From Bacteroidales bacterium (GTDB lineage: Bacteria; Bacteroidota; Bacteroidia; Bacteroidales; JAADJA01), in contig JAGVPB010000093.1 of the NCBI GenBank assembly GCA_020052415.1, positions 1-64,000 on the forward strand: a stretch of 64,000 bases of DNA. The letters run 5' to 3'. Position numbers and translations under genes: made by a program. Shown piece by piece: positions 44,363 to 57,258 of this stretch. Under the pieces are notes generated by a model. That model was given only the letters and a program-made list of their open reading frames with translations. It did not search any database and was not told the DNA's origin. Position 1 is the first letter of the stretch, and every line of letters starts with the position of its first letter.

Positions 44363-45154
44363 TTAATTTGCATGTTTATCCGGATTGCAGCAGCAGTTTT
44401 CTGCAGAGCATTCGGAAGGTTTTTCCCCAATTAAAGTCACGTTAAAAATTCCTTCATCGGTATAAATATCCTTGTATCTTTCAACCTCTTCAGAGCTAAG
44501 GTATTTGTGGAAAATATCATCAGGGAGGTAAACTTTGCTCATTTCTACAATTTCAACATTAACAAAACCGGTTCTTCTGAAATAATCCATGAAATCGTTG
44601 ATTTTTTCAGCACCTGCAATACATCCGGCAAGTTCAGCACCATCTTTTCTTAATCCATCAGGTATTTGCTGCAGTATTACAAAATCCGAAACACAAACAT
44701 ATCCGTTATGCCGGGCTATCCTGTACATTTCGTCGGCTACTTTTTGCTTATTTTCCTGGAGGTTAAAAACACAATTGGATAATACAATATCAGCATATTC
44801 TTTCGGTAAGGGAACACTGTTTATGTCGCCATGCCGGAATTCCACGTTATTGATGCTCAATTGGTCCATATAATCGCGGGCGGTGTTAATATTCTTTTCG
44901 GAAATGTCAATACCCATAACCTTACCGGTAGGTCCAATAACCTGGGCAGCAGTAAAACAATCGTTCCCGGTTCCTGAACCGAATTCAACAACCCTGTCAC
45001 CCTGCCTTAGAATTTGGAACCGAACAGGTAATTCATTTTGTTCGTGAGTGTGATTGTGTTCATGACCGTGGCATCCGCATCCGCCGGATCCACAAGCGCA
45101 GGCACTTTCCTGAACCTGTTCCTTTTGTTCTATTACTTTTATATTTTCTTCCAT
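44363..45154 (-). CDS. arsM: Arsenite S-adenosylmethionine methyltransferase
   Basis: ArsM methylates As(III) with SAM to volatile or less toxic forms. The 263-residue protein carries the SAM motif VVEFGSGTGNDCFTAAQ, whose Cys (C66) is one of the conserved arsenic-binding cysteines, NCVFNL, and a second conserved Cys in LAGCIAGA. The N-terminus has a metal-rich tail (CACGSGGCGCHGHEHNHTHE, about residues 19-38) and the C-terminus another Cys cluster (ENCCCNPDK). Both are outside the usual core and may bind metalloid. It is downstream of arsR in the same direction (105-bp gap), so repression by ArsR is probable. Confidence 0.9.
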   Translation of the reverse strand: MEENIKVIEQKEQVQESACACGSGGCGCHGHEHNHTHEQNELPVRFQILRQGDRVVEFGSGTGNDCFTAAQVIGPTGKVMGIDISEKNINTARDYMDQLSINNVEFRHGDINSVPLPKEYADIVLSNCVFNLQENKQKVADEMYRIARHNGYVCVSDFVILQQIPDGLRKDGAELAGCIAGAEKINDFMDYFRRTGFVNVEIVEMSKVYLPDDIFHKYLSSEEVERYKDIYTDEGIFNVTLIGEKPSECSAENCCCNPDKHAN

Positions 45155-45192
45155 TTTAAATTGTTTTTTCCATTATTACTATATCGTTCAGG

Positions 45193-45260
45193 GTTCTGTG
45201 TTTTTAGTTCTGAGTTCAGGATTTGAAAAAACCGACAACCCGGAACCCGGAACACAGAAC
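45193..45260. repeat. Inverted repeat between arsR and arsM
   Basis: GTTCTGTGTT (45193-45202) and AACACAGAAC (45251-45260) are perfectly inverted. Within them lie GTTCTGAGTTCAGG and CCCGGAACCCGGAAC words of the low-complexity type seen in other gaps of this window (47095-47130, 47555-47590, 52288-52320). The right arm touches the arsR stop. Confidence 0.55.
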
Positions 45261-45598
45261 TATTTCTTACATCCGCATGTTAGCTCGTGCAATCCATCAT
45301 TAAAAAAACTATCCATAGCTCCTTTATACATCAGGAGCATTTCAGTGTTGACTTTGTAGCAAACCTGCACTCCCGTTACTTCATATTCTACTAATCCCAG
45401 ATTTCTGAGTTCCTGAAGATGTTGGGATACTGTAGTCCGGCTGAGAGGTAATTCACTTGCAATATCACCCGATTTGCAGGTACAGCATTTGGATAAATGC
45501 TGAAGAATAGCCAGACGTGCCGGGTGCGACAGTACTTTAGCAAATTTTGCCACCTCCTGTAATCCTGATTCAAATGCGACTGATTTCGTATATGTCAT
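45260..45598 (-). CDS. arsR: ArsR-family metalloregulator
   Basis: A 112-residue winged-helix repressor. The metalloid site resembles the ArsR alpha3 type: cysteines C38, C39 and C41 (LSKCCTCKSGDIA). The recognition helix is in LSRTTVSQHLQELRNLGL. Two more cysteines close the chain (TCGCKK). It should leave DNA when arsenite or antimonite binds, allowing arsRM transcription. The start at 45598 lies 12 bases from a perfect 7-bp inverted repeat that fits an operator. Confidence 0.92.
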   Translation of the reverse strand: MTYTKSVAFESGLQEVAKFAKVLSHPARLAILQHLSKCCTCKSGDIASELPLSRTTVSQHLQELRNLGLVEYEVTGVQVCYKVNTEMLLMYKGAMDSFFNDGLHELTCGCKK

Positions 45599-47061: not shown

Positions 47062-47145
47062 AATTGTAATGTTTAGAAATTAATTAATGATTTTTTTATA
47101 GTTTGGAGTTTGATGTTCGAAGTTTGAAGTTGAACAACAAGCTCT

Positions 47146-47544: not shown

Positions 47545-47571
47545 TTGTTTTTTTTTAACTTCGAACTTCAA

Positions 47572-48220
47572 ACTCTGAACTCCGAACGGTTTGTTGATGA
47601 GGCAAAATTATATCCGCTGCCAAACCCGATTCGGTTAATAAACATTTGTATTCGTTTAACATTCGTTTGTAACCGGGTGCAATTGGGTAAAGTGCTGAAA
47701 ATTAATCTTTGCACCTGCCGATGGAAAAGATTTTTACATACTAAAACTAACTTTCCATACAATGGCTATGAATTCCAAAATAGTAGAAACGATTTTCTTG
47801 AAAGTTGCTGGTTTGTGCTTTAAATTGAAACCGATGGGGGATTGCCTCCTCATTGGTTTTTGACCTCACCCTACTATTAGTTTTAATTTGGGGGTGTCGG
47901 ATGAATGGAGGGGGAAAATGTATAAATTTGAGAATTGAAAAATTAACTGATTGACTTTATGAATGCAACTAGTAGTGTAGGCCTTGGAAGGAAGACTCTT
48001 GATAAAAGTGATGTTACTAGTAAGGAAGTTATACCAATAGGAAATTATTACAATAAATAAAATCAACTTTAATGATTATTTTTAAGAAATTGACTTACTT
48101 TTGAAAATAAAATCTGATACTTTTATGGTTATTTGTGGATTTTTGATACAAACCCAGGAAAAATTTAGAGGTAGAGGTATTAACGACCCGGTAGGCATGG
48201 TGGTTTACTATTAGCTTAAG
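47572..48220. other. Long non-coding stretch before the MORC-like system
   Basis: About 650 bp, part of an 866-bp gap. It is AT-rich. Only short ORFs appear, e.g. 33 codons at 47959-48060 and 29 codons at 48125-48214, with no recognisable similarity. No terminator, RNA gene or transposase fragment was identified. It may be the edge of an acquired island. Confidence 0.4.
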
Positions 48221-48412: not shown

Positions 48413-48441
48413 ACATAGAAGAAAGGAGTTGTGAACAATGA
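48409..48441 (+). CDS. Ten-codon leader ORF (MNIEERSCEQ)
   Basis: An ATG at 48409 is preceded by GAAGGAG and encodes ten residues. Its stop TGA (48439-48441) overlaps the ATG (48438) of the MORC-like ATPase gene. A second strong AAGGAG motif inside the leader serves that gene. This looks like translational coupling. Confidence 0.4.
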   Translation: MNIEERSCEQ

Positions 48442-51005
48442 ATTCTCAGTATAGAGGAGAACCTCAGGAATTATTTGAAATGGCGGGGAGCGTAACCGAC
48501 CAGATTGATGTAAAGATTAGTCACAGGATTATACAGCTTTTCTCCGAGGGTCTTTATTCCAGCCCTAATAAAGCTGTAGAAGAACTTGTTTCTAATTCTT
48601 TTGATGCAGGAGCTCAAAATGTTAACATCATTCTTTCTGCGGATTTACGTGACCCGGATGCAACAATTGTGGTCATTGATGATGGGGAAGGTATGAATGC
48701 TGATAGTCTTAAACAACATTGGGTTATTGGTGAAAGCATAAGGCGTTTGAGTTCTGGTTCTCAGAGGCGTAAACCAATTGGTAAATTCGGTATTGGCAAA
48801 TTATCCACATATGTATTGGCCTCAAAGCTTACTCATATTTGTAAATCAGGTAATACTTATTATGGTGCAACAATGGACTATACAAACTTAACAGGCAGTG
48901 CAGAAAAAGCTTCAGTCGGTGTTTTTGATGAGCAGACGATTCATATACCGTTACGAATCCTAACGCATCAAGAAGCCAGGAATACATTAAAGCTATGGAT
49001 TAATGGAACGAAGGAGGGTTATCGAGTGCTTGATTTGTTTGGAGAAGAGGCCCCAGAATCGTGGACTGTTGCAATAATGTCAGGCCTCAAAAAAATGGGG
49101 AAGGAAATTAAAATAGGTCGGTTAACATGGGTTTTGAAAACCGCCATGCCAAAGAGCAATGACTTTCATCTTTTTCTAGATGGTGATCCAATAATGCCAC
49201 CAAAAATGGATGAACCGTTGGCTAAATGGGTAATAGGCAAGGACATTATTCAGATGCCAAAGCCATGTCCTCAAGAACTGATTGAGAGGGAAGATATCAG
49301 TGAGCCTTTAGATTCCGTTCATAGGTATGGCATCTACCATGAAGACTTGCTTGGTCGAATAACAGGATTTATTGAAGTATTTATAAACGAACTCGATGCA
49401 GGCAAACCGAAATATGAGCAGAGTTCCGGATTTTTCGTCTATGTGCGTGGACGACGTGTTAATGTAGATGACCCAGGCTTTGGAATAGAACGGAATCTGC
49501 TTCGACATGGAACATTCTCTAGATTTAGAATGATAGTGCATATTGATAGTCTGGATGAAGCTCTTCGATCTTCACGTGAATCATTTCAGCAAGGTGAACT
49601 TTATGAAGAAGTGCAAAACTTCCTTCGCGCAGGTTTTAATCTTGCCCGCAATCGTTTAGTCGAATACGACCGATCTCAATCACCCGCAGCTCTGATTTCT
49701 GATCGCATATCCTCTGCCCCAGGTAGTATGACTCGAAAACCGCTGTTATCACTTGCACGGCTTGTTGCTGAGAATAAGGCAACGCCATTCTACCTGCGAT
49801 TTCCTTCTGGTCTTTCTGCTACAGAGATGATTGCGTTCTTAGAGAGTTTAAAAGAACGTGTGGAAGGGCCGGCAGGATTAATCCGAAATTCAGATATGGT
49901 TGCCTTAGACTCGAAAGAAGGACTGGCGGTTTTTGATGTTCAAGTAGGAAAATTACTTATAAACTTATCTCATCCATTTGTTGCGGCTTTTCAGGAGTCG
50001 TTTATCGATAACCAAAAGAGCATACCACTTGAAATGTTCGTAATGTCTGAAATTTTGATGGAAGCTCATTTGTATAATATGGATTTAGATGAGAGCGTAA
50101 TCCGCGAAGTGATTGCCAGACGTGATGAATTACTCAGACAGTTTGTAAGATCATCTGCACGCCGGACGGCTGGAATGATTGCCTTAGCACTTAATGAAGC
50201 GCGTAATGATGAAGATAAATTAGAAGAGGAAATGCGAGCCGCATTTGAAGTGATGGGTTTCGCAAATGTTATTCGTATCGGAAAGAAAAACAAACCAGAT
50301 GGAACTGCTGAAGCACATCTCGCGGCAGCAGAAGATGGGAGTTTACAACGCTATAAGGTTGGGCTTGAAGCAAAAAGTGGACAAACAGTTTCCGCTAAAC
50401 GTTTAGACGTATCGGGGATCGCTAGGCACATGCAAGATTATAAATGTGACCATCATCTGGTAATTGGTAATGGTTTTGCAACCTCTACAGGGGAAGATTC
50501 TGCATCGGTTCGAGAAATTAAATCTAACAAAGAAAACACTGGGAAAACAATAACGCTGATGCAAATTGATGATTTGGCACGGTTGATTCGGATTGCTTCT
50601 TCGAGGCGTGTCGGAGGCCTTAGCCGCCTTCGTAATCTCTTTAAAAGCTGCATAACTCCTGAAGAAAGCAAGGGCTGGGTTGATGCGCTGGAATCTGAAA
50701 CCCCGGACAACTGGCCATATAGAGAAATTTTGGAAACTATTTGGGAGCGTGCAGAAAAGCGACCAGATACGGCAATTGAATATTCTGCTGTCATGACAGC
50801 TCTTGAATATCGCAATCCACCAATTACTATTTCAAAAAAAGAATTGATCGATTGCTGCCGTTCAATGCAAGTTATGGCACGTGGAGTTGTCTTTGCCCGC
50901 GAAAATACCGTTGAAATTGACAGACGACCAGACTTAATATTAGATGATATAAGAGTGGCTGTTGGTGAATTCCCAGAAAAGGAAAGGAAGGCAATATATA
51001 TATGA
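48438..51005 (+). CDS. MORC/Hsp90-like GHKL ATPase fused to PD-(D/E)XK nuclease domain
   Basis: An 855-residue protein. The Bergerat ATP-binding fold is at the N-terminus: E49/N53/D56 (EELVSNSFDAGA), D81-x-G83-x-G85 (DDGEGM), G115-x-x-G118-x-G120 (GKFGIGKLS). A GHKL transducer-like region follows (about 290-400, with SSGFFVYVRGRRV and RFRMIVHIDSLDEALRSSRE). Further on is a nuclease-like core P620-D621-G622 ... E644-A-K646 (KPDGTAEAHL, KVGLEAKSG), the PD-(D/E)XK signature. The C-terminus is helical or winged. The next gene, a DNA methyltransferase, overlaps its stop by 4 bases. Together they fit the predicted restriction-modification systems built on MutL/MORC-type ATPases. Strong ribosome binding site AAGGAG 10 bases before ATG 48438. 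Confidence 0.82.
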   Translation: MNSQYRGEPQELFEMAGSVTDQIDVKISHRIIQLFSEGLYSSPNKAVEELVSNSFDAGAQNVNIILSADLRDPDATIVVIDDGEGMNADSLKQHWVIGESIRRLSSGSQRRKPIGKFGIGKLSTYVLASKLTHICKSGNTYYGATMDYTNLTGSAEKASVGVFDEQTIHIPLRILTHQEARNTLKLWINGTKEGYRVLDLFGEEAPESWTVAIMSGLKKMGKEIKIGRLTWVLKTAMPKSNDFHLFLDGDPIMPPKMDEPLAKWVIGKDIIQMPKPCPQELIEREDISEPLDSVHRYGIYHEDLLGRITGFIEVFINELDAGKPKYEQSSGFFVYVRGRRVNVDDPGFGIERNLLRHGTFSRFRMIVHIDSLDEALRSSRESFQQGELYEEVQNFLRAGFNLARNRLVEYDRSQSPAALISDRISSAPGSMTRKPLLSLARLVAENKATPFYLRFPSGLSATEMIAFLESLKERVEGPAGLIRNSDMVALDSKEGLAVFDVQVGKLLINLSHPFVAAFQESFIDNQKSIPLEMFVMSEILMEAHLYNMDLDESVIREVIARRDELLRQFVRSSARRTAGMIALALNEARNDEDKLEEEMRAAFEVMGFANVIRIGKKNKPDGTAEAHLAAAEDGSLQRYKVGLEAKSGQTVSAKRLDVSGIARHMQDYKCDHHLVIGNGFATSTGEDSASVREIKSNKENTGKTITLMQIDDLARLIRIASSRRVGGLSRLRNLFKSCITPEESKGWVDALESETPDNWPYREILETIWERAEKRPDTAIEYSAVMTALEYRNPPITISKKELIDCCRSMQVMARGVVFARENTVEIDRRPDLILDDIRVAVGEFPEKERKAIYI

Positions 51006-52270
51006 TATCCGCTGCACAGAAAGCACATGTCCGTACAATTCATCCTTTTCCAGCACGGATGGCTCCATCTATTGTGTGGGACTGTTTACCAAATTCAGAT
51101 AGGCCAAAAAGAATTCTTGACCCAATGGCCGGATCCGGAACAACCCTTGTCTGCGCCAGAGCAAAAGGACATTACGCTATAGGCTACGAAACCGACCCCT
51201 TGGCATTTCTTATTGCACGAACTTGGTGCTCAGATATTGACCGTGTAAGGGTGAATAACCGTGCGGTCATTGTTTTGGAACGAGCAAAAATTCTCGCAGA
51301 TAAATTAGATTATCACGAGGCTTATCCTAAAGGGGCTGACGAAGAAACCCGTCATTTTATCAATTTTTGGTTTGACAATGAAAATCGTCGTCAATTAACC
51401 GCTTTGTCCACATGCATTAATCGAATAAGTTCCGAAGACGAGAGAATATTTCTTTGGTGTGCTTTTTCACGTCTGATTATCACTAAGTCCACAGGTGTTT
51501 CACTCGCAAGGGATGTTTCTCACAGTAGGCCACACAAAGTTTACCAGACAGCTCCCATACACCCATTTGATAAATTTCTAAAAGCGGTTGAACATGTAAT
51601 CAATAACTCACCATTTCATCAAAGCAATAAATCTGTAGGAAGAAACCCTTTTGCGGATATTCATATGGGTGATGCTAGGTATTTACCCATTAACTCTAAT
51701 AGCATTGACATGATCATTACCTCACCACCCTATCTTAATGCTATTGATTATTTGCGGGGACATAAGCTCTCCCTTGTATGGATGGGTTATCGTATTGCAA
51801 TGATTAGAGGTATTCGTTCTGAAAACATAGGTTCAGAGATATCAGATCATCCACAACTGGAAAACACCATTCTTGAAGCGATTAAAGCAATGGGGAAATT
51901 AAGTGATTTGAATAATCGTCAAATGGGTATGTTAAGACGTTATGCATATGATATGAATAGTGTATTGAAAGAATGTGCGAGAGTTATCAAAAAAAATGGA
52001 AATGCTATTTTTGTCGTTGGCGATTCAGCTTTGCACGGGGTATTTATAAAAAATTCTGATGGGCTTATAAATCTTGCAGTCAACCACGGCTTTTCTTTAG
52101 TTTCGAGAGTAGTTCGCCCGATAGCAGAAAATAAAAGGTATCTTCCTCCTCCGAACTTGCAACAAACTGGAGAACAATTACAAAGACGTATGAGAGAGGA
52201 GGTCATTCTAAAATTTATCTCTAATGGAAAAGTTGAAAGAAAAGATTTTACAAAGATGAATACAAAATAA
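51002..52270 (+). CDS. DNA methyltransferase (adenine-N6 or cytosine-N4 type)
   Basis: A 422-residue amino-methyltransferase. The SAM-binding motif I is DPMAGSGTT (D40-T48) and the catalytic motif IV is TSPPY (T240-Y244) followed by LNAIDYLRGHKLSLVW. Motif I precedes IV, the opposite of the beta class. The N-terminal HPFPARMAPSIV resembles methyltransferases that accompany restriction systems. About 190 residues between the motifs could hold the target-recognition part. It starts 4 bases inside the end of the ATPase-nuclease gene (ATGA), a one-transcript, paired system. It should protect host DNA from that partner. Recognition sequence unknown. Confidence 0.88.
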   Translation: MISAAQKAHVRTIHPFPARMAPSIVWDCLPNSDRPKRILDPMAGSGTTLVCARAKGHYAIGYETDPLAFLIARTWCSDIDRVRVNNRAVIVLERAKILADKLDYHEAYPKGADEETRHFINFWFDNENRRQLTALSTCINRISSEDERIFLWCAFSRLIITKSTGVSLARDVSHSRPHKVYQTAPIHPFDKFLKAVEHVINNSPFHQSNKSVGRNPFADIHMGDARYLPINSNSIDMIITSPPYLNAIDYLRGHKLSLVWMGYRIAMIRGIRSENIGSEISDHPQLENTILEAIKAMGKLSDLNNRQMGMLRRYAYDMNSVLKECARVIKKNGNAIFVVGDSALHGVFIKNSDGLINLAVNHGFSLVSRVVRPIAENKRYLPPPNLQQTGEQLQRRMREEVILKFISNGKVERKDFTKMNTK

Positions 52271-52321
52271 AGGCTGTCGCTGAAAGAGATAAACTTCAAA
52301 CCCGGAACTCAGAACTTCGAA

Positions 52322-52696
52322 CTAATTATCCACATACTCCTGCTTCATCACAAGGGCGAAATAGTTGTCTTCCACCGGCAGATAGCCGTATTCATAGCAG
52401 AAATAGTAAGTTTTCCCGGCTTTGGTTTTATAAGTGTTGGTGTAATAATCGAAATTAAAGCCTTTGTCTTTAAGTTTGTTGTGATGCACCCTCGCCTTGC
52501 CATTGGGGTTATATTCCTCAAGTATGCGGCGGTTTTTCCTTAAAATGCCATTCACATTTCTTACATAGTTATTTGAATCCTGCTTCAGCCTGTTGTTGTA
52601 CGTGTTCCGGCACTGATCGGAACAAAACTTTTTATCCGACCTGCCGATGATCTCAAATCCGCATTCAAGACATTTTTGTTTTTCCATATTCATCAT
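52322..52696 (-). CDS. Zinc-ribbon protein of unknown function
   Basis: A 124-residue protein with an N-terminal zinc ribbon (CLECGFEIIGRSDKKFCSDQC, cysteines C10, C13, C26, C30) and a conserved helical/beta tail (NNYVRNVNGILRKNRRILEE, TYYFCYEYGYLPVEDNYFAL). It looks like a small family conserved in Bacteroidota. Convergent with the methyltransferase gene, and not part of that system by orientation. Nucleic-acid binding is an inference. Confidence 0.72.
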   Translation of the reverse strand: MMNMEKQKCLECGFEIIGRSDKKFCSDQCRNTYNNRLKQDSNNYVRNVNGILRKNRRILEEYNPNGKARVHHNKLKDKGFNFDYYTNTYKTKAGKTYYFCYEYGYLPVEDNYFALVMKQEYVDN

Positions 52697-56529: not shown

Positions 56530-57258
56530 GTTCGGCTTAGGCTCCGCCTGAGCCGGTCATATCTCCGGAGGCTTATGCCTCCATGATTTAAACTGTTTTC
56601 CATTCCAATTCAAGTTTGATAACTTCCAGTTCATAGTCTAAGCCTGCATAATTCCTGGCGCTTGAATACAGATAATCCTCTGGTCTGGATACAATGCCCG
56701 CTCTTACAGGATTATTATGAATATATTCGATTTTTTGTTCGATAAATTTTTGACTGTAAATTTCTTCTGCATGATTTTCATGTGTCCATACCTGGTGGTC
56801 TTGTTTGTTTTTAAACTTTCCATGGAATTCAAACACGAGTTTTATCCAGTCTCTCCTGCTTTCACTATCATTATCCAGAACTTCCAAAAACTTTTTGCTT
56901 GTGAAGTTCTTAAAATTCCTGATAATACCGCTTAAATCACCGGTTTCGCTTCTTGCTAACAAATGAATATGGTTCGACATAATAACGTATGCAAAAAGCT
57001 CCAATCCTTTATTATTCTGGCAATATCGAAAGCTGTCAATAACCATATCTTTGTAAATTCGTCGTGTGAAAAGATCAACCCATCCCACAATTTGAAAGGT
57101 AAGAAAATACAAAGCCTGTCCTTCACTTATTTTGTAACCTGTTGACAATTTGTATTAATTAATTGCATCAAATTTACTTATTATTATACATCACAGACTA
57201 CTTATTCAGGCCTGAGCCTGAAAGGATATATTCGACTGAGGCAGAGCCTCCGCCGAAC
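56530..57258. mobile_element. REP/RAYT element with intact transposase
   Basis: A 729-bp element bounded by inverted two-hairpin units. Left: GTTCGGCTTAGGCTCCGCCT (56530-56549) and GGAGGCTTATGCCTCC (56567-56582). Right: CAGGCCTGAGCCTG (57207-57220) and the arm ending CCGCCGAAC (57258). It encloses the RAYT gene. An internally deleted relative is at 19316-19627 and a solo right-type end at 58629-58651. Confidence 0.8.
56588..57148 (-). CDS. REP-associated tyrosine transposase (RAYT, Y1 family)
   Basis: A 186-residue single-domain Y1 transposase related to IS200/IS605 TnpA. The HUH motif is in YVIMSNHIHLLA; the catalytic Tyr is expected in the helix near QKIEYIHNNPVRAGIV. YLYSSARNY is a typical RAYT segment. 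The start is a TTG at 57148; no in-frame ATG fits. The same start region survives in the deletion derivative. RAYTs act on single-stranded REP sequences, which surround this copy. The full-length reading suggests it may still be active. Confidence 0.88.
   Translation of the reverse strand: MSTGYKISEGQALYFLTFQIVGWVDLFTRRIYKDMVIDSFRYCQNNKGLELFAYVIMSNHIHLLARSETGDLSGIIRNFKNFTSKKFLEVLDNDSESRRDWIKLVFEFHGKFKNKQDHQVWTHENHAEEIYSQKFIEQKIEYIHNNPVRAGIVSRPEDYLYSSARNYAGLDYELEVIKLELEWKTV

What the first reader, a model, noticed from the sequence alone, without database searches (positions are those of the whole stretch)
48438..52270. MORC-like GHKL ATPase-nuclease paired with a DNA methyltransferase
Seen: complete Bergerat ATPase motifs, a PDG...EAK nuclease core in the same chain, and a downstream TSPPY/DPMAGSGTT methyltransferase overlapping by 4 bases. 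Known: Iyer, Abhiman and Aravind predicted restriction-modification systems with MutL/MORC-type ATPases (Biology Direct 2008, from memory). Inference: a compact two-gene R-M or modification-sensing defence system in which ATP-driven clamp closure licenses cleavage. Few, if any, have been shown to work.
Basis: partly seen in the sequence, partly recalled or inferred. Interest (0 to 1): 0.82.

Follow-up and report, generated by a model that had tools for sequence, protein, structure and literature searches.

The report
GHKL ATPase-nuclease restriction-modification gene pair
Two overlapping genes encode a DNA-marking enzyme and a DNA-cutting enzyme carrying a MORC/Hsp90-like ATPase; the pair recurs as a unit across many bacterial phyla, so it is very likely a little-studied restriction-modification system whose cutting may be gated by ATP.

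Summary
ORF 48438-51005 (855 aa) has an intact GHKL ATPase and transducer whose predicted fold is closest to MORC3 and Hsp90, plus a PD-(D/E)XK nuclease domain (Pfam Mrr_cat above threshold; the family profile reaches HindIII). ORF 51002-52270 (422 aa) is an N4/N6-type DNA methyltransferase; the genes overlap by ATGA. Of 71 informative family loci, 47 have a same-family methyltransferase adjacent or overlapping, and about 12 more have another DNA methyltransferase within about 0.5 kb. In 64 aligned proteins the ATPase residues are invariant and the nuclease residues are kept in 61-63. Distances of the two proteins agree (Mantel r 0.82, 0 of 5000 permutations). This fits a stand-alone two-gene restriction-modification system; in some species it lies inside Type I operons or beside a Z1 helicase. 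It is not BbrUII/HgiDII and probably not paraMORC3/Shedu, but belongs to the kind Iyer et al. predicted in 2008. "Few, if any, have been shown to work" is dated: VcSduA (GHKL plus Shedu nuclease) blocks phages, and BbrII of Bifidobacterium appears active. Function, recognition site and ATP-gating of the window's pair are untested. New variant of a known kind.

The parts
48422..48428 (+). AAAGGAG ribosome-binding site of the ATPase-nuclease gene
   Evidence: sequence; 9 nt before the ATG
48438..51005 (+). 855-aa GHKL ATPase-nuclease (proposed restriction subunit)
48513..49679 (+). GHKL ATPase plus S5/transducer module, residues 26-414 (E49, N53, D81, G83, G115-K121; invariant R380 in an SRE loop)
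   Evidence: HATPase_c_3 2e-18; MORC3 Z 24.8, Hsp90 Z about 22; residues invariant in 64 of 64
50157..50603 (+). PD-(D/E)XK nuclease domain, residues 574-722 (E596, D621 at 50298-50300, E644-A-K646 at 50367-50375)
   Evidence: Mrr_cat above threshold; HindIII E 0.006, hhalign 40.6 vs at most 18.9 in 60 shuffles; topology
50604..51002 (+). C-terminal mostly helical region, residues 723-855, no assigned family (possible DNA-recognition part, inference only)
   Evidence: secondary structure
50981..50991 (+). GGAAAGGAAGG, likely RBS of the methyltransferase gene
   Evidence: sequence
51002..51005 (+). ATGA 4-base overlap, suggests translational coupling
   Evidence: -4 or -1 overlap recurs in 20 homologous loci
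51002..52270 (+). 422-aa permuted amino-methyltransferase (motif I 51119-51145, TSPPY 51719-51733)
   Evidence: N6_N4_Mtase 1.7e-11; PADLOC Type II methyltransferase models in 45 of 45 members; model pLDDT 87.6, pTM 0.88

Best explanation
A stand-alone two-gene restriction-modification system. The methyltransferase marks a specific site in host DNA, probably as N4-methylcytosine (inferred from TSPPY). The 855-aa protein is the restriction subunit: a MORC/Hsp90-like dimer that closes on DNA when ATP binds and thereby brings two HindIII/Mrr-like nuclease domains together to cut DNA lacking the mark. Shown here by computation: domain make-up, intact catalytic residues, conserved coupling and co-divergence of the two genes. 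Inferred: that the system restricts, the target, the dimer, and ATP-gating.
For: Pairing: 45 of 71 informative loci have a same-family methyltransferase within 120 bp, 2 more have an adjacent frame-split one, and about 12 have another DNA methyltransferase (N6_N4 or C5) within about 0.5 kb. Co-divergence: Mantel r 0.82, 0 of 5000. Catalytic residues of ATPase and nuclease kept across at least 15 phyla by record titles. Purifying selection on both genes, dN/dS 0.03-0.08 in diverged pairs. Nuclease related to HindIII, a Type II restriction enzyme. Decay pattern: in L038 the methyltransferase is a remnant and the nuclease lysine is R. Horizontal spread: no matching methyltransferase in 16 congeners, nearest relatives in other phyla. 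GHKL-plus-nuclease defence by VcSduA requires ATPase and nuclease residues (PMC12137116).
Against: No activity data. L083 has intact motifs but no methyltransferase beside it (its genome has a 33% identical one elsewhere). Haloarchaeal members lack a directly adjacent same-family methyltransferase. pTM is 0.59, so the arrangement of ATPase and nuclease is not predicted reliably. In L067 the methyltransferase was exchanged for a distant one with no local change in the ATPase-nuclease, so how the two keep a common target is not explained.
Confidence: 0.75

Rival explanations
1. Classic Type II R-M in which the nuclease cuts without ATP and the GHKL module only dimerises or folds the protein.
For: Nuclease resembles HindIII, an ATP-independent enzyme; the GHKL-containing BbrUII/HgiDII enzymes are filed as ordinary restriction enzymes.
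Against: All ATP-binding and hydrolysis residues and R380 are invariant in 64 of 64, which a mere scaffold would not need; VcSduA loses protection when its GHKL glutamate is replaced (PMC12137116).
Confidence: 0.2
2. Modification-sensing (Type IV-like) or invasion-sensing nuclease; the methyltransferase is a regulator or tags the target instead of protecting the host.
For: The Mrr_cat family includes methylation-dependent nucleases (established knowledge; match); VcSduA works as a single gene (PMC12137116).
Against: Tight conserved pairing with methyltransferases of at least three kinds; an active methyltransferase beside a nuclease that cuts methylated DNA would attack the host.
Confidence: 0.12
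3. Accessory part of a larger R-M machine (Type I or Z1-helicase system), not a self-sufficient unit.
For: In L056, L060, L063, L064 and L109 it lies with Type I hsd genes, and in L057, L062, L072, L085 with a Z1 helicase.
Against: Most loci, the window included, have no such neighbours; clustering found no other gene shared by many loci.
Confidence: 0.1

Closest known systems
MORC/paraMORC GHKL proteins of prokaryotic R-M operons (Iyer, Abhiman and Aravind 2008, PMC2292703)
   Same: GHKL plus S5 module, RE-fold nuclease, neighbouring methyltransferase, patchy horizontal distribution; some loci carry a Z1-domain helicase (Pfam PF10593)
   Different: The fused-nuclease family described there is paraMORC3 with a RecB-like nuclease; this family has a HindIII/Mrr-like nuclease, mostly no helicase, and a permuted amino-methyltransferase
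BbrUII/HgiDII restriction enzymes (NCBIfam NF050001)
   Same: N-terminal GHKL domain, adjacent DNA methyltransferase (m5C, GTCGAC; PMC5867850)
   Different: Window protein scores 63.6 bits against a cut-off of 550, only over residues 37-157; no alignable C-terminal half with a family relative; different methyltransferase class
VcSduA, GHKL-Shedu nuclease (PMC12137116)
   Same: One chain with GHKL ATPase and PD-(D/E)XK nuclease; shown to block phages, both active sites needed
   Different: Shedu DUF4263 nuclease, single gene, no methyltransferase partner
HindIII (Type II restriction endonuclease)
   Same: Nuclease-domain sequence similarity including the (D/E)AKS active site
   Different: HindIII has no GHKL domain
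Eukaryotic MORC3/MORC2 and Hsp90
   Same: Predicted ATPase-transducer fold (Z 19-25)
   Different: No nuclease domain and no methyltransferase partner

Membership tests
GHKL ATPase superfamily | N-box E/N, DxG, GxGxxG/K ATP-binding motifs | tested here: met
   HATPase_c_3 2e-18; invariant in 64 of 64
MORC family (Iyer 2008) | GhXhhpXXRhl motif in the S5 domain | tested here: not met
   Window has GFFVYVRGRRV at 331-341: the polar position is V336 (V in 60 of 64) and the window has R at the next-to-last, hydrophobic position; the fold is nevertheless MORC-like
paraMORC3 / GHKL-Shedu | C-terminal Shedu (DUF4263/SduA_C) nuclease | tested here: inconclusive
   No SduA_C match in Pfam for the window or for 61 nuclease domains, Mrr_cat instead; against a record named ParaMORC3 similarity stops near residue 410, but that reference protein itself had no Shedu hit in Pfam
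BbrUII/HgiDII restriction enzymes | NF050001 score of 550 bits over the whole protein | tested here: not met
   63.6 bits over residues 37-157 only
PD-(D/E)XK restriction-endonuclease fold | core topology with D and (D/E)xK on neighbouring strands | tested here: met
   Mrr_cat 7.5e-5 over threshold, 25 of 61 members; topology; the domain was not folded and searched alone
DNA amino-methyltransferase (N6_N4_Mtase) | motif I and (D/N/S)PP(Y/W) in a Rossmann AdoMet fold | tested here: met
   motif order permuted
Restriction-modification system | methyltransferase linked to the nuclease gene | tested here: met
Restriction-modification system | same target for both enzymes; methylation protects; nuclease restricts foreign DNA | not testable with these tools
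   needs methylome and restriction assays

The most novel reading that the evidence does not exclude
A mechanistically separate class of R-M: an ATP-operated MORC/Hsp90-like clamp, not a helicase motor, licenses a HindIII-like nuclease to cut DNA lacking the partner methyltransferase's mark, making this pair a simple working model for how MORC-type ATPases act on DNA.
Probability: 0.45. Interest if true: 0.8.

Novelty: new variant of a known kind. Interest (0 to 1): 0.58.

Why it matters
Well-studied ATP-using R-M enzymes are driven by helicase-type motors (established knowledge of Types I and III). A widespread pair with a MORC/Hsp90-type clamp fused to a restriction nuclease would give a tractable two-gene system to test how GHKL clamps control DNA cleavage and to compare with eukaryotic MORC proteins, and would add a family of site-specific methyltransferases and nucleases with unknown targets.

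Tried and rejected
Close relatives in viral contigs: none with the single protein; one full-length viral member with the profile (L127). Phage and plasmid collections: only the ATPase domain or distant members. Close relatives in Bacteroidota: one divergent genome among 395. Empty-site analysis: flanking genes are not clearly syntenic within the genus, so no clean empty site. Composition: cassette GC 0.33-0.43 like its flanks. Target-recognition swap by sliding identity in L067: no local divergence. The PDB list for the methyltransferase is dominated by Rossmann enzymes, best archaeal Trm11, Z 17.3, 2.2 A over 176 residues: says fold, not substrate.

Full report
Observation. The window encodes two overlapping genes on the + strand: 48438-51005 (855 aa) and 51002-52270 (422 aa). 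The 4-base ATGA overlap and an RBS for each gene are visible in the sequence. Pfam finds HATPase_c_3 (2e-18) and Mrr_cat (7.5e-5, over its threshold) in the first, and N6_N4_Mtase (1.7e-11) in the second.

Fold. The AlphaFold2 model of the 855-aa protein, built on 61 family sequences, has mean pLDDT 85 and pTM 0.59, so the domains are usable but not their arrangement. Residues 26-414 match solved structures of MORC3 (Z 24.8, 307 residues, 3.2 A), MORC4, Hsp90 (about 22), MORC2 and SMCHD1. The strict MORC motif GhXhhpXXRhl of Iyer et al. (PMC2292703) is nearly but not fully met (GFFVYVRGRRV). An invariant arginine (R380) sits in an SRE loop as in Hsp90 (Hsp90 comparison from memory). Residues 574-722 show helix-strand-strand-strand-helix-strand order with D621 and E644-x-K646 on neighbouring strands. 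A profile of 61 nuclease domains finds HindIII in the PDB set (E 0.006); the profile comparison scores 40.6 against at most 18.9 for 60 shuffled copies, and the HindIII segment in turn picks family members first among 6416 ORFs, though weakly (E 0.045 at best). Mrr_cat is matched by 25 of 61 members. The methyltransferase model (pLDDT 87.6, pTM 0.88) is a Rossmann AdoMet fold with an inserted helical region; its profile matches solved amino-methyltransferases, among them a cytosine-N4 enzyme.

Family. A genome-wide scan gave 80 loci, most with full-length relatives. The nearest are 60-73% identical and come from Neomarinimicrobiota, Nitrospirae and Chloroflexota. In 395 genomes sampled from the window's own phylum only one other carries a full-length relative, and 16 congeners show no matching methyltransferase, so the pair was most likely acquired horizontally. 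Brevibacterium and Cellulosimicrobium share a 6-kb stretch at 99% identity that includes the pair, a recent transfer. In 64 aligned full-length proteins the ATPase residues E49, N53, D81, G83, G115, G118, G120, K121 and R380 are invariant and E596, D621, A645 and K646 are kept in 61-63.

Partners. Among 76 family loci, 5 are cut by a contig end. Of the other 71, 45 have a same-family methyltransferase within 120 bp or overlapping (20 of them by 4 or 1 bases), and in two more the methyltransferase is frame-split but adjacent. Five have a more distant N6_N4 methyltransferase next door, one viral locus has another N6_N4 enzyme, and a separate clade has C5 methyltransferases. The type of partner follows the tree of the ATPase-nuclease: 7 changes against a shuffled mean of 16.5. 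Distances of the two proteins correlate (r 0.82, none of 5000 permutations). L067 is an exchange: its ATPase-nuclease is 76% identical to that of L063 but its methyltransferase only 41%, with no local divergence in the ATPase-nuclease. Both genes are under purifying selection (dN/dS 0.03-0.08 in diverged pairs).

Wider context. In four loci the pair lies directly behind or near Type I hsdM/hsdS, with hsdR following in two; a fifth lies beside Type I genes too. In four others a Z1-domain helicase accompanies it. Clustering of neighbours found no other widely shared gene, so the two-gene form, as in the window, is the usual one. In L038 (same contig as L114) only a remnant of about 49 residues of the methyltransferase remains and the nuclease lysine is arginine; this single case fits an R-M pair in which the nuclease cannot stay active without its methyltransferase. 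L083 is an exception with intact nuclease motifs and no local partner, although its genome encodes a 33% identical methyltransferase elsewhere.

Known relatives. Iyer et al. predicted that GHKL proteins of R-M operons work with nucleases and helicases (PMC2292703). Their fused-nuclease family, paraMORC3, was later tied to Shedu; VcSduA, of that architecture, protects against phages and needs ATPase and nuclease residues (PMC12137116). The BbrUII/HgiDII family of restriction enzymes also starts with a GHKL domain; transposon data show the BbrI-III methylase genes to be essential, from which the authors infer active enzymes that earlier assays had missed for BbrI and BbrII (PMC5514069). The window's family fails the BbrUII model (63.6 of 550 bits). 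Its nuclease does not match the Shedu Pfam model, but the reference protein named ParaMORC3 did not match it either, so that test is inconclusive.

Judgement. The pair is very likely an R-M system (0.75). That ATP-driven clamp closure gates cleavage is plausible and rests on invariant ATPase residues plus analogy with VcSduA and MORC (about 0.45). The base modified (m4C) is inferred from TSPPY only. Novelty: a distinct, unnamed variant of a known kind as far as the libraries searched here go; REBASE was not available.

Noticed in passing
L056, L060, L063, L064 (also L109): The GHKL-nuclease/methyltransferase pair is embedded in Type I R-M loci, behind hsdM-hsdS and in two cases before hsdR, sometimes overlapping hsdS by 1-4 bases.
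   Followed up: partly
L057, L062, L072, L085: A 616-665 aa Z1-domain SFII helicase accompanies the pair.
   Followed up: partly
L071:5547-11603 and L087:5548-11604: A 6-kb stretch with the pair is 99% identical between Brevibacterium and Cellulosimicrobium, a recent transfer.
   Followed up: partly
window 47100-47131, 47557-47587, 52292-52324: Copies of a GAACTTCGAACTTCAAACT-type repeat flank a four-helix-bundle (23S IVP-type) gene and follow the methyltransferase; 77 hits in the genome against 6 for the reversed control.
   Followed up: partly
window 44363-45598: ArsR-type regulator next to a cysteine-rich methyltransferase resembling arsenite methyltransferase ArsM (ArsM assignment by eye).
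   Followed up: no
window 56588-57148 (-): 186-aa protein that by eye looks like a REP-associated tyrosine transposase.
   Followed up: no
L033:3046-9185 (Allorhizobium plasmid): A 37% identical methyltransferase sits head-to-head with a cassette of another methyltransferase, a GHKL histidine-kinase-like protein and a further gene, apparently the two-component-like R-M cassette of PMC8011034.
   Followed up: partly
window 49962-49976 (residues 509-513 of the ATPase-nuclease): An invariant N509..H512 motif (NLSHP) between transducer and nuclease has no assigned role.
   Followed up: no
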